From Cordylochernes scorpioides (Eukaryota; Arthropoda; Arachnida; Pseudoscorpiones; Chernetidae), in NCBI GenBank assembly GCA_030710605.1, contig CP092870.1, positions 51,411,921 to 51,475,920 on the forward strand: DNA of 64,000 nt, in the 5' to 3' direction. A model generated the notes under the pieces. The model searched no databases. It saw only the letters and a list, made by a program, of their open reading frames with translations, and was not told where the DNA came from. This document shows positions 37,980 to 41,033 of the stretch, in pieces (within the stretch, counting starts at the first letter, position 1; each line of letters begins with the position of its first letter). Position numbers and translations under genes: made by a program.

Positions 37980-38288
37980 TGAGATAAGAGGCAGCCAGCG
38001 GGCGACGCTGGCATCCTGGGACGCTGGCTGGCCAGCCGGCCTGCGCGCGCACCGGGGGCTGCGCGCGCACTTTTCGAACACCGCCTGATCTCGCCGGCTT
38101 GTTTACCGCCCGTCGCTACAACCTACGGCGGTTCCTTCTATTATATAATACTCTAGGCGCTGGTGGAGTAAAAACTGTACTCCACCTGCCTCTTATAATT
38201 GTATGTAATTTTTGAACTTATTAAAATATAAATTATTAATTTATAGTTCTCACTGCAGCTCGAACCTTTACCCTAACGCGGTAGAACA
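37980..38288 (+). repeat. 5' LTR of the KH element
   Basis: It starts TGAGATAAGAGGCAGCC and ends GCGGTAGAACA. The first 110 bp are GC-rich with a repeated CTGCGCGCGCAC motif. The rest is AT-rich, with TATATAATA near 38142 that may serve as TATA box. Confidence 0.95.
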
Positions 38289-38302
38289 TGGCGCAATCGA
38301 CA
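38289..38302 (+). promoter_or_regulatory. Primer-binding site of the KH element
   Basis: TGGCGCAATCGACA directly follows the LTR. The TGGCGC start suits a tRNA 3' CCA end and resembles tRNA-Ser-type sites of gypsy elements; the tRNA identity is inferred. Confidence 0.7.
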
Positions 38303-38358
38303 TTCGGTTAATTATAGCCGTTTTTTAAGTGACAGCTCAGTGACAATTAGTAATCAAG

Positions 38359-39399
38359 ATGCCCTCAAGAAGGAATCGCCGACCATCCCAAACCCCTCCA
38401 GAGAACCCTGCCTCGCCGACCAGCACCGACATCCTCAGGTCCATAGCCGCACTGTTGCAGCAGATGGCTACTCGGAATCCGACACCGACAGTCCCATTAG
38501 GAGCTCCTCCTCACCACGCCACAAAAATCATCCAGCTTCCTAAACTGGCTTCCCCGGAGGAGTTAACGATGTCTGTTTTCCGCGATTGGAAACAACGTTG
38601 GAACGACTACGTGGACGCCCAACAAGTAGCCACCTTCCCGCTATCCACACAGCAAGTGACTTTGCGTGCCGCCCTCCATTCCGAATGGACCATCCTTTGG
38701 CAATCAGGCCGCCTTCATATTTCTACCACCACCACCCTCGATGAAGCCGTGAATGCTCTCGAGGCCTACCTACGCAAGAAGCGAAACCCCCTCCTTGATC
38801 GGCAAGATTTTCATCGTAGGGACCAACAAACCGAAGAATCGGTGGATCGCTACTTCGCAGCCCTTAAAGCTCTTGATGACTCGTGTGCACATGAGCTGGA
38901 TTTTAAGTGCAGCACATGCGGCGACCCGTGTATTACAATATGCACAAAAAGAGCTTGTGGGAAAACGTTTGCCCTTGCTGGTTATCAACAGCAACTCCGT
39001 ATCCGTGACAGGTTATTATGTGGCCTGTTTGATAAAGACCTCCAACGAAAAGTACTGGCGGAGCAGTACAATTCCGACCTCTCCCTGGACCGAGTCCTCT
39101 CAATTTGTCTCGCACATGAGAGTGCTACCGCCGTGAGCGCGACTCTTTCACCCTCCCCAACCACCTCCCCCGAAGCCTTCATTGCAACCAGACGTGCACC
39201 ATCAACCTACAAGCATCAACAAGCCAGCTCGTCTGAAACCTCACCTAAGGCCAACCGTTTCTTTCAGAAACCCTATGATCCTAACGACCACTGCTCCGGA
39301 TGTGGGGCTAACCCAAGACACCGCCGTGACCAGTGCCCAGCAAAAGACATAGAGTGTAACAAATGCGGCATCACCGGGCATTATGGAAGGGTTTGCTGA
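38359..39399 (+). CDS. gag protein of the KH element
   Basis: 346 codons from ATG 38359, 70 bp after the LTR. It has a Pro-rich N-terminus, a gag core with FRDWKQRWNDYVDAQQV and TLDEAVNALEAYLRKKR, and an unusual Cys-rich insert (CSTCGDPCITICTKRACGK). Two zinc knuckles lie at the C-terminus: CSGCGANPRHRRDQC and CNKCGITGHYGRVC. It would form particles and bind RNA. It ends at TGA 39397-39399, and the same frame stays open beyond for another 478 codons. Confidence 0.88.
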   Translation: MPSRRNRRPSQTPPENPASPTSTDILRSIAALLQQMATRNPTPTVPLGAPPHHATKIIQLPKLASPEELTMSVFRDWKQRWNDYVDAQQVATFPLSTQQVTLRAALHSEWTILWQSGRLHISTTTTLDEAVNALEAYLRKKRNPLLDRQDFHRRDQQTEESVDRYFAALKALDDSCAHELDFKCSTCGDPCITICTKRACGKTFALAGYQQQLRIRDRLLCGLFDKDLQRKVLAEQYNSDLSLDRVLSICLAHESATAVSATLSPSPTTSPEAFIATRRAPSTYKHQQASSSETSPKANRFFQKPYDPNDHCSGCGANPRHRRDQCPAKDIECNKCGITGHYGRVC

Positions 39400-40833
39400 C
39401 AACTGAAACGGAAACCCACAACCAAACCTAATATCCCGCCACCCGCAACCAGAAACAATCAGTCCCAACCAGGACCCTCAAACACAGTTGTTGAAGCTGG
39501 AGTACGCAACGAACTCATAACCATTCCGACCGATATCAACCATAAGTTACACCAAATCCGTTGGCTGGCGGACCCGGGGTCAGATCTGGATCTAATCCCA
39601 GAATCAGAATTCCTGTTACTGGATGAGCAGACCCGATCAGCACTCAACCCGAAGAACGTCCCTTGCGTAGGAGCCAACGGCATCAGCTTAAGTCCTTGTG
39701 GATCGTTCGTCGCGGCACTGCATCTCAACGGGAAAACATACAGTACTACCGTTGGAGTCTGCAAGCACCTGAACGCCCCTCTCTTGAGCAAGAGCGGATG
39801 CAAAGCCTTAGGACTTCTGCCGGATAACTGGCCCCATTCAATGATCGTCAATGCCATAACCAACGGACAAGTTCTAACGTTCCCGCCGAACCCGATGAGA
39901 GCCAATGAGATCGATAAGCAGTCTATCCTTACCCATCATGCTAGGGCGTTCGACGACACAGTGTTAAAACCCATGCAAGGACCCCCCATGTCTATCGAAC
40001 TAGTTAAAGATGCCGTTCCTTGCAAACGCTACCGGGCATACAACGTTCCCTTTCACTGGAGAGACCCCGTCAAAACTCAACTCGATACCATGTTGGCGAA
40101 AGGGATAATCGAACAGGTACCCGTCGGCGAAGCCATCGATTGGTGCCATCCTATGGTAGTCGTCCCGAAAAAAGGCTCATCACAAGTCACTATACCAAAT
40201 GATCTCGCCGGTGCCATCATTGGGAAAGGTGGTCAACGCATCAGGAAGATCCGGCGCGAGTCTGGTGCGGGGATCACCATAGATGAGTCTCAACCTGGTA
40301 GCAACGAACGGGTCATCACCATCTCTGGCACGGCCCAGCAGATCCAGATGGCCCAGTACCTCTTGCAGCAAAATGTAAGAGAACATTCCTTCCGGAAGCG
40401 ATACAATCGCAACGCCAAGCCACTCTCACATTTGGAAGTGGGAGCAATAGTCCTTGTCCAGGATCACCGCACAAAACATTGGACCCTCCTTGCTGAGGTT
40501 CTCGAACAACTTCCACGCGGTCGCAGCTACCTCATCCGGACCGACGCCGGACGCCTTCTTCGCCGTAATCGCAGATTCTTACGACCTTTCGTGCCTCCAC
40601 CGTACACCACCCCACCCAACTCAGCTCAACATCAGCAGACCTTATCCCCTCGAACCCGAGAACCGAACCCGCGTTATAGCAACTACGTTGGATCGGTCCC
40701 AAGTCCCAATCTCCAGGGGGGGCATGAGATAAGAGGCAGCCAGCGGGCGACGCTGGCATCCTGGGACGCTGGCTGGCCAGCCGGCCTGCGCGCGCACCGG
40801 GGGCTGCGCGCGCACTTTTCGAACACCGCCTGA
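39400..40833 (+). CDS. Protease / RT-stub / KH domain / integrase-tail ORF of the KH element
   Basis: It is open in the gag frame directly after the TGA. A retropepsin-like part has WLADPGSDLDLIPESEF (Pro replaces Thr or Ser after the active Asp, near 39571). Next comes an RT beginning (GIIEQVPVGEAIDWCHP, MVVVPKKGSS) that stops before the catalytic core. From 40186 to about 40386 the frame encodes a KH domain with LAGAIIGKGGQRIRKIRRES and the C-terminal MAQYLLQQNV, very like KH3 of hnRNP K proteins. Then follows an integrase C-terminal tail (VLVQDHRTKHW, RNRRFLRPF). The last 36 codons read into the 3' LTR. Expression after the TGA would need readthrough or another start. The joins are clean and fully in frame. 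Confidence 0.87.
   Translation, partial: QLKRKPTTKPNIPPPATRNNQSQPGPSNTVVEAGVRNELITIPTDINHKLHQIRWLADPGSDLDLIPESEFLLLDEQTRSALNPKNVPCVGANGISLSPCGSFVAALHLNGKTYSTTVGVCKHLNAPLLSKSGCKALGLLPDNWPHSMIVNAITNGQVLTFPPNPMRANEIDKQSILTHHARAFDDTVLKPMQGPPMSIELVKDAVPCKRYRAYNVPFHWRDPVKTQLDTMLAKGIIEQVPVGEAIDWCHPMVVVPKKGSSQVTIPNDLAGAIIGKGGQRIRKIRRESGAGITIDESQPGSNERVITISGTAQQIQMAQYLLQQNVREHSFRKRYNRNAKPLSHLEVGAIVLVQDHRTKHWTLLAEVLEQLPRGRSYLIRTDAGRLLRRNRRFLRPFVPPPYTTPPNSAQHQQTLSPRTREPNPRYSNYVGSVPSPNLQGGHEIRGSQRATLASWDAGWPAGLRAHRGLRAHFSNTA
40186..40386 (+). other. KH RNA-binding domain (hnRNP K KH3-like) embedded in the retrotransposon ORF
   Basis: 67 residues with the type I KH core: the GXXG loop is G-K-G-G in IIGKGGQR, followed by the ESGAGITIDE strand and a final AQYLLQQ helix. 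Residues typical of hnRNP K KH3 (IP-DLAG, IIGKGG, ITI-GT, QIQ-AQYLLQ) are all present. No intron interrupts it, which suggests capture from spliced RNA or one exon. Confidence 0.9.
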
Positions 40834-41033
40834 TCTCGCCGGCTTGTTTACCGCCCGTCGCTACAACCTACGGCGGTTCCTTCTATTATATAATACTCTA
40901 GGCGCTGGTGGAGTAAAAACTGTACTCCACCTGCCTCTTATAATTGTATGTAATTTTTGGACTTATTAAAATATAAATTATTAATTTATAGTTCTCACTG
41001 CAGCTCGAACCTTTACCCTAACGCGGTAGAACA
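40725..41033 (+). repeat. 3' LTR of the KH element
   Basis: Identical to 37980-38288 except for one base. It is preceded by the purine run AGGGGGGG (about 40715-40722), the polypurine tract. Confidence 0.95.

What the first reader, a model, noticed from the sequence alone, without database searches (positions are those of the whole stretch)
37980..41033. A young LTR retrotransposon that carries an hnRNP K-like KH domain in place of most of pol
Seen: a complete element with 309-bp LTRs differing at one base, TSD GTCAT, primer site and polypurine tract. Its single frame runs gag, TGA, protease, RT start, KH domain, integrase tail. The KH domain (40186-40386) replaces everything from the RT palm through the integrase core, with both joins in frame. 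Known: hnRNP K KH3 binds C-rich RNA/DNA, and host-domain capture by LTR elements is rare. Inference: the element moved after the capture, since its LTRs are nearly identical, and uses RT and integrase from a relative. The KH domain may help select RNA, localise particles or bind host C-rich targets. I know of no described element of this design.
Basis: partly seen in the sequence, partly recalled or inferred. Interest (0 to 1): 0.96.

Follow-up and report, generated by a model that had tools for sequence, protein, structure and literature searches.

The report
Retrotransposon that captured hnRNP K domain
A pseudoscorpion's mobile element has swapped its own copying machinery for a piece of the host's hnRNP K gene, taken from spliced messenger RNA, and has since multiplied to hundreds of copies, probably by borrowing the enzymes of a full-length sister element; it is an unusually fresh and complete record of how jumping genes steal host protein domains.

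Summary
Confirmed, and stronger than first read. The window lies in the genome of Cordylochernes scorpioides (pseudoscorpion). The element (37980-41033) is one of about 336 places with its captured join. Of 40 copies examined, 31 had both ends resolved: all 31 have perfect 5-bp target duplications; LTR divergence averages 0.29%. The KH segment is the spliced last exons of the host's own hnRNP K gene on C9, two introns cleanly absent; 36 of 59 copies read are identical to the gene over 216 nt. A full-length Ty3/gypsy sister (158 places; frames up to 1499 aa) is near identical outside the KH and keeps RT, RNase H and integrase. The 5' join lies in 9 nt (GGCTCATCA) shared by sister and hnRNP K; the 3' join shares 3 nt and carries 4 extra nt that set the frame. 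Best reading: transduction of host mRNA by template switching, then mobilisation in trans. The gag TGA is private to this copy. A function of KH is not shown: its diversity resembles neighbouring regions. The kind is known (maize Bs1, LTR-mediated retroposition); no such KH element appeared in my paper listings.

The parts
37975..37979 (+). target site duplication, left (GTCAT)
   Evidence: sequence
37980..38288 (+). 5' LTR, 309 bp
   Evidence: TG...CA ends
38289..38306 (+). primer binding site candidate (TGGCGC...), tRNA not identified
   Evidence: position after the LTR; motif reading only
38359..39396 (+). gag frame, 346 aa, two CCHC-type zinc knuckles at the end (motif reading)
   Evidence: no Pfam hit; first 500 nt of 5'UTR-gag differ at 2-4 positions from 10 sister copies
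39397..39399 (+). in-frame TGA, private to this copy
   Evidence: sense codon in 38 of 39 other copies; site deleted in the 39th
39400..40182 (+). protease region and RT start, shared with the sister element up to and including GGCTCATCA
40174..40182 (+). 9-nt microhomology GGCTCATCA between sister pol and hnRNP K exon: 5' switch point
40174..40389 (+). hnRNP K KH3 and C-terminus, three exons spliced together, 216 nt; 1 difference from the host gene in this copy (40333), 0 in 36 of 59 copies
40390..40393 (+). extra TTCC (repeats the preceding 4 nt) that puts the 3' join in frame; follows the 216 nt in 59 of 59 copies read
40394..40398 (+). GGAAG of hnRNP K; AAG (40396-40398) also in the sister: 3' switch point
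40396..40724 (+). integrase C-terminal tail, shared with the sister; frame stays open into the 3' LTR (to 40833)
40712..40724 (+). polypurine-like G run before the 3' LTR
   Evidence: motif reading only
40725..41033 (+). 3' LTR, 309 bp
41034..41038 (+). target site duplication, right (GTCAT)

Best explanation
The element is a non-autonomous Ty3/gypsy LTR retrotransposon made by transduction of a host mRNA. Shown by sequence: gag, protease region, RT start, integrase tail and LTRs match a full-length sister element; the rest is KH3 and the C-terminus of the host's hnRNP K gene with introns removed; the joins lie at 9 nt and 3 nt of shared sequence; every copy read shares the same joins; copies are young, have proper target duplications and outnumber the sister about 2:1 by pattern count. 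Inferred: hnRNP K mRNA was packaged with sister RNA, reverse transcriptase switched templates twice during cDNA synthesis, and the chimera was integrated. Since then its RNA has been copied and inserted by RT and integrase supplied in trans by the sister, while its own Gag-protease-KH-tail fusion is translated. The KH is most likely a passenger carried in frame so far (about 0.65); a positive role is the main rival.
For: Host gene at G000:C9 about 99229920-99232650: KH2 exons, then the KH3 exons with a 57-nt and a 288-nt GT..AG intron, both absent from the element. Of 59 copies read, 36 are identical to the spliced gene over 216 nt, 17 differ at one base, 4 at two, 2 have indels; the extra TTCC follows in all 59 (43 of the 59 were chosen by KH match). 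Sister: 110 of 110 scored matches are 98-100% identical over 373 aa of RT-RNase H, frames up to 1499 aa, often 1488 (57,658 first-look candidates, so not a copy count); RVT_1, RNase H and rve by Pfam in annotated pieces P0122 and P0116. Ten sister copies: 10 of 10 TSDs, 0-2 LTR substitutions, 2-4 differences to the window in about 500 nt of 5'UTR-gag, 0-3 in the tail. Pattern counts with up to 1 mismatch: KH join 337 including, as expected, the host exon, sister 158, reversed-pattern controls 0 in both. 31 of 31 KH copies with both ends resolved (of 40) have 5/5 TSD, mean LTR divergence 0.29%, 16 pairs without substitutions. Frame: 23 of the 36 copies that keep the gag start are open as far as they reach; 7 of 7 distinct indels of 10 bp or more in the frame are multiples of three, two of them (252, 306 bp) each in four copies. 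Polymorphisms shared with the sister and 38 of 561 site pairs with all four gametes fit co-packaging and recombination.
Against: No transcript, particle or transposition data. No count of KH-less deletion derivatives was obtained (tail searches did not complete), so it is unknown whether KH copies are special among derivatives. The sister pattern is CpG-rich and may undercount. 18 occurrences of 1-nt indels in the frame among 40 copies and 13 of 36 copies broken: the frame is not strictly kept; deletions that remove the gag start (for example L036, L040) were not in the multiples-of-three count. The 40 full copies were picked by best KH match. Shared polymorphisms could partly be repeated mutation.
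Confidence: 0.9

Rival explanations
1. The KH domain is useful to the element: as part of the Gag-protease-KH fusion it binds C-rich RNA or minus-strand cDNA, or engages hnRNP K partners, and so improves packaging, nuclear traffic or escape from host control, which is why the chimera outnumbers its sister.
For: About 336 places with the KH join against 158 with the sister's. Both joins are in frame, the 3' one only thanks to 4 extra nt. Two sublineages that deleted the RT start in frame still keep KH, though the sample was chosen for KH. Predicted fold and GxxG loop are intact. KH variants 4 N: 4 S against about 2.5:1 expected.
Against: That N:S is not significant (P 0.17). KH diversity 0.0055 is like 5'UTR-gag 0.0067, RT start 0.0094 and tail 0.0043 (other copy set). 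An I-to-T change at 40322 is in 7 of 20 copies, and 2 of 22 copies have frameshifting indels in KH. No excess of C-patches in the element. A shorter element may simply copy better.
Confidence: 0.3
2. The hnRNP K piece entered by recombination with an existing processed hnRNP K copy in genomic DNA, not directly from mRNA during reverse transcription.
For: Processed hnRNP K-like loci exist: a pair on C13 with long single-frame KH genes.
Against: The C13 pair is diverged (39% identity to human hnRNP K over residues 3-69 of the query), whereas the commonest element KH equals the intron-bearing gene base for base. The joins lie at short shared sequence as for LTR-mediated retroposition. No other spliced KH3 copy was noticed, but I did not check each of the 94 KH3 matches, so one may have been missed.
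Confidence: 0.06
3. Assembly or annotation artefact, or a single dead chimera.
For: Public gene models here mislead: one KH copy is named HNRNPK (P0115) and a sister copy is merged with NIP7 (P0116).
Against: About 336 dispersed places, 31 of 31 resolved copies with perfect target duplications, subfamily variants and amplified deletions.
Confidence: 0.01

Closest known systems
Bs1 of maize (LTR retroelement with transduced host gene pieces)
   Same: LTR element carrying transduced host gene segments that became a chimeric gene (passages of reviews PMC13317346 and PMC5408686; primary papers not read)
   Different: Bs1 carries segments of three plant genes (ATPase, xylan endohydrolase, glucanase; same passages); that it has few copies is recalled. 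Here one RNA-binding domain, an animal, about 336 places, with a young sister and the identical donor gene in the same genome
LTR-mediated retroposition (Tan et al. 2016, known here only through PMC5408686 passages)
   Same: cellular mRNA in the particle, template switching at microsimilarity, host sequence between LTRs
   Different: described there as retrocopies; here the chimera became a proliferating element family with the domain inside a polyprotein
Replication-defective transducing retroviruses (gag-onc; recalled)
   Same: gag fused to a host coding piece in place of pol, moved by a helper
   Different: Ty3/gypsy element; no envelope frame was looked for; genomic spread, no known effect on cells
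Non-autonomous LTR elements (TR-GAG, LARD, TRIM; mostly recalled)
   Same: keep LTRs and priming sites, some keep gag, use a partner's enzymes
   Different: not known to me to carry a host protein domain in a gag frame
Accessory domains of LTR polyproteins (chromodomain, DnaQ-like exonuclease, SF1 helicase; PMC6338049 passages)
   Same: extra domain in a retrotransposon polyprotein
   Different: those are additions to retrotransposon polyproteins, here the domain replaces most of pol; the term KH domain does not occur in that paper's main text

Membership tests
Ty3/gypsy LTR retrotransposon (non-autonomous member) | two LTRs and target site duplication | tested here: met
   31 of 31 resolved copies with 5/5 TSD; 9 of 40 not resolved and dropped
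Ty3/gypsy LTR retrotransposon (non-autonomous member) | relationship to a gypsy pol with RT, RNase H, integrase | tested here: met
   sister element; domains seen in annotated pieces P0122 and P0116, not in one scan of a whole element
Ty3/gypsy LTR retrotransposon (non-autonomous member) | lacks its own RT palm and integrase core | tested here: met
   only KH families found in 39403-40731; joins
Ty3/gypsy LTR retrotransposon (non-autonomous member) | tRNA-primed minus strand | tested here: inconclusive
   PBS position and TGG start present; tRNA not identified
Host-gene-transducing LTR element (Bs1 kind) | captured segment derived from a host gene, as spliced RNA (the spliced criterion is recalled) | tested here: met
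   introns of 57 and 288 nt absent
Host-gene-transducing LTR element (Bs1 kind) | chimeric open reading frame | tested here: met
   23 of 36 copies that keep the gag start are open through gag into KH and tail (one of them cut at 40592)
Host-gene-transducing LTR element (Bs1 kind) | chimeric frame is transcribed and translated | not testable with these tools
   no RNA or protein data held
LTR-mediated retroposition | microsimilarity at the joins | tested here: met
   9 nt at the 5' join, 3 nt at the 3' join; the sister's 3' join was read in 3 of 12 loci by an exact word search
LINE-type processed retrocopy | poly(A) tail and variable-length TSD, no LTRs | tested here: not met
   LTRs and constant 5-bp TSDs
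hnRNP K KH3 domain | best match hnRNP K KH3, intact GxxG and type I KH fold | tested here: met

The most novel reading that the evidence does not exclude
The captured hnRNP K KH3 is the reason for the element's success: a host RNA-binding domain built into a Gag-protease fusion gives a parasite of a parasite a packaging, trafficking or silencing-evasion advantage, making this a newly born satellite element caught within about 0.3% of divergence from its birth.
Probability: 0.3. Interest if true: 0.92.

Novelty: new variant of a known kind. Interest (0 to 1): 0.78.

Why it matters
Capture of host genes by retroelements is usually inferred from old, decayed cases (recalled). Here everything is present in one genome: the intron-bearing donor gene, the full-length sister, both switch points at base resolution, a frame-setting 4-nt addition, and hundreds of young copies. 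That makes two questions testable: what sequence match suffices for template switching onto a cellular mRNA, and whether a stolen RNA-binding domain helps a non-autonomous element outcompete its helper. It also warns annotators: one copy is in public databases as an HNRNPK protein (P0115).

Tried and rejected
C-rich targets: the internal region has 52 C-runs of 3 or more, mean of 200 shuffles 54.9; clusters 6 against 6.0. The minus strand has 15 against 19.5; its one odd feature is a 7-nt C run opposite the G tract, reached by 5% of shuffles. Dropped as support for KH binding its own RNA.

Selection on KH: the first 40 copies were chosen by KH match, so their lack of KH variants was not used. 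The 22 exact-pattern copies that one search lists on C1 were read instead (10 already held, 12 fetched). The 20 without indels give 4 N and 4 S variants. The window labels printed are 6 too low; coordinates here are corrected (the stretch starts at 40174). Gag plus pro-RT singletons 73 N: 42 S against 2.5:1 expected (P 0.04 one-sided, transition weight 3 assumed): weak; tail singletons go the other way (14 N: 3 S).

Fixed differences between KH and sister copies: one strongly different site (40431, near the KH) in the three pieces compared, with 8-10 sister copies.

PBS tRNA: not identified. P0116's missing RT could be a gene-model artefact (NIP7 merged with a sister copy), so it is not counted as a deletion derivative. 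The human KH1-KH2 query found only the C13 KH pair. The protease and RT-start query found only weak matches (E 0.02 or worse, ubiquitin-conjugating enzymes) in the PDB. One search failed and was redone; the LTR ends were badly placed and redone in 31.

Papers: searches (listings of the best-ranked papers seen); passages read of PMC5408686, PMC13317346, PMC3726574 and PMC6338049; PMC5131818 not held. In the listed titles and abstract starts I saw no LTR element with a KH or hnRNP K domain.
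Full report
Observation. The element at 37980-41033 is real: 309-bp LTRs with one difference, TSD GTCAT, gag, protease region, RT start, a KH domain and an integrase tail. Pfam sees only KH families (KH_1, E 3.6e-22). By sequence and predicted fold (mean pLDDT 82.9, type I KH order of strands and helices, top PDB matches hnRNP K KH3) it is hnRNP K KH3.

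Whose genome. A protein search with the downstream frame returned annotated proteins of Cordylochernes scorpioides on contigs whose lengths equal C1, C4 and C20 of this genome, so the window is from this pseudoscorpion. The best hit, P0115, is called HNRNPK in the public record but is a gene model that contains a copy of this element.

A family, not a single copy. A 23-nt pattern from the 5' end of the captured piece matches 337 places with up to one mismatch (reversed control 0). One is expected to be the host gene, since the pattern lies wholly in its exon; the printed list stops at 100 places, on C1-C5, and does not show it. I read the 39 other places scored. Of these 40 copies with the window, 31 had both LTR ends resolved: all 31 have identical 5-bp duplications, mean LTR divergence is 0.29%, and 16 pairs have no substitutions, though some of these differ by indels. 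Nine were dropped because they are truncated or their ends were not recognised. Four copies lack the gag start (two of them, L036 and L040, by a deletion from within the 5' LTR into gag). Of the other 36, 23 are open through gag into KH and tail as far as they reach, and 13, including the window copy, are broken. The TGA between gag and protease is private to the window copy: 38 of 39 others have a sense codon, one lacks the site.

The donor. A search with scorpion hnRNP K KH1-KH2 led to the host gene on C9. Its last exons contain the element's KH: exon end GGCTCATCACAAGTCACTATACCAAATGAT, a 57-nt GT..AG intron, the KH3 exon, a 288-nt GT..AG intron, and the last exon TGTAAGAGAACATTCCGGAAGGAAGTTTTAA. 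The element has the three exons joined and both introns gone, so the source was spliced RNA. Over 216 nt, 36 of 59 copies read are identical to the gene, 17 differ at one base, 4 at two, and 2 have indels. Forty-three of these 59 were chosen by KH match. In the set of 22 exact-pattern copies listed on C1, the 20 without indels carry 14 differences in 4320 nt (summed), 0.32%, close to the LTR divergence. The capture is thus about as young as the insertions.

The sister. Searching with RT-RNase H sequence gave 110 scored matches at 98-100% identity, with frames up to 1499 aa. At the 5' join the sister reads GGCTCATCA-GAACCGCG (11 of 12 loci showed it; in L054 the search word was absent), the element GGCTCATCA-CAAGTCAC. 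At the 3' join both continue AAGCGATACAATCG (sister read in 3 of 12 loci by an exact word). A 24-nt pattern for the sister's join has 158 matches (control 0), so KH places outnumber it about two to one; that pattern is CpG-rich and may undercount. Ten sister copies examined at both ends have 10 of 10 TSDs and 0-2 LTR substitutions, and their 5'UTR-gag and tail pieces differ from the window at 2-4 of about 500 and 0-3 of 257-300 positions.

How the capture happened (inferred from the joins). GGCTCATCA is in both the sister's pol and the hnRNP K exon: 9 nt of identity at the switch. At the other end AAG is shared, and four extra nucleotides (TTCC, repeating the preceding four) precede GGAAG; without them the tail would be out of frame. 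The extra TTCC follows the 216 nt in all 59 copies read, so one founding event explains them. This is what LTR-mediated retroposition predicts: cellular mRNA in the particle and template switching at microsimilarity (PMC5408686, passages; PMC13317346, passages).

How it spreads (inferred). With no RT palm and no integrase core, the element must use enzymes in trans; the near-identical sister is the obvious supplier. Polymorphisms shared with the sister at several sites and 38 of 561 pairs of sites showing all four combinations fit mixed particles and recombination. Two sublineages have since lost part of the RT start, by 252 and 306 bp, and amplified (four copies each); 7 of 7 distinct indels of 10 bp or more in the frame are multiples of three, which suggests that the frame matters in cis. 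Against a strict need, there are 18 occurrences of 1-nt indels in the frame among the 40 copies, and selection cannot act on indels seen in only one copy unless that copy has moved again.

Does KH matter? Not shown. KH nucleotide diversity (0.0055) is in the range of 5'UTR-gag, RT start and tail (0.0067, 0.0094, 0.0043; different copy sets). Variants are 4 synonymous and 4 replacement, not significantly below expectation (P 0.17), and one replacement (I to T, 40322) is in 7 of 20 copies and in P0115. Two of 22 copies have frameshifting indels in KH. C-patches, the known kind of hnRNP K target (recalled; ssDNA complexes), are not enriched in the element. The higher copy number could reflect shorter length alone. 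I therefore put a positive KH role at 0.3 and a passenger in frame at about 0.65.

Known or new. The kind, LTR elements that transduce host gene sequence, is known; maize Bs1 is the classic case, and rice and sorghum have 672 and 1343 LTR-captured genes (PMC3726574, passages). In the listings of nine paper searches I saw no LTR element with an hnRNP K or KH domain and no work on retrotransposons of this species; the listings show only the best-ranked papers. New here as far as seen: an RNA-binding host domain inside a gag-pol frame, in an animal, at hundreds of copies, with donor and likely helper both identified at base resolution.

Noticed in passing
L048 1399-2286 and L049 (G000:C13:83509767 and 83542929): A pair of diverged hnRNP K-like genes with long single open frames (296 and 274 aa) about 33 kb apart; KH_1 found in L048. 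Perhaps an old retrogene and its duplicate.
   Followed up: partly
window 27158-37106: About 10 kb of repeats with long open frames on both strands (VQPDIFNSTSE-like units), directly upstream of the element.
   Followed up: no
window 19772-21250: Single 492-aa frame with RING/IBR and Ariadne domains, perhaps a retrocopy of an ARIH1-like ubiquitin ligase gene.
   Followed up: no
window 46128-49180 and 6450-7814: Pieces of further retroelements: RNase H and integrase zinc-binding domains in 47183-49180, a retroviral-type protease in 6450-7814.
   Followed up: no
KH-element LTRs, about positions 61-88 of the LTR: In 7 of 31 copies the two LTRs of one copy differ by exactly 18 bp in the GC-rich palindromic part, as if reverse transcriptase skips or adds a hairpin unit.
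   Followed up: no
NCBI protein P0116 (NIP7 / K02A2.6-like): Sister-element sequence lies inside a gene model of NIP7 (pre-PUA and PUA parts flank protease-integrase sequence): an insertion in the gene or an annotation merge.
   Followed up: no
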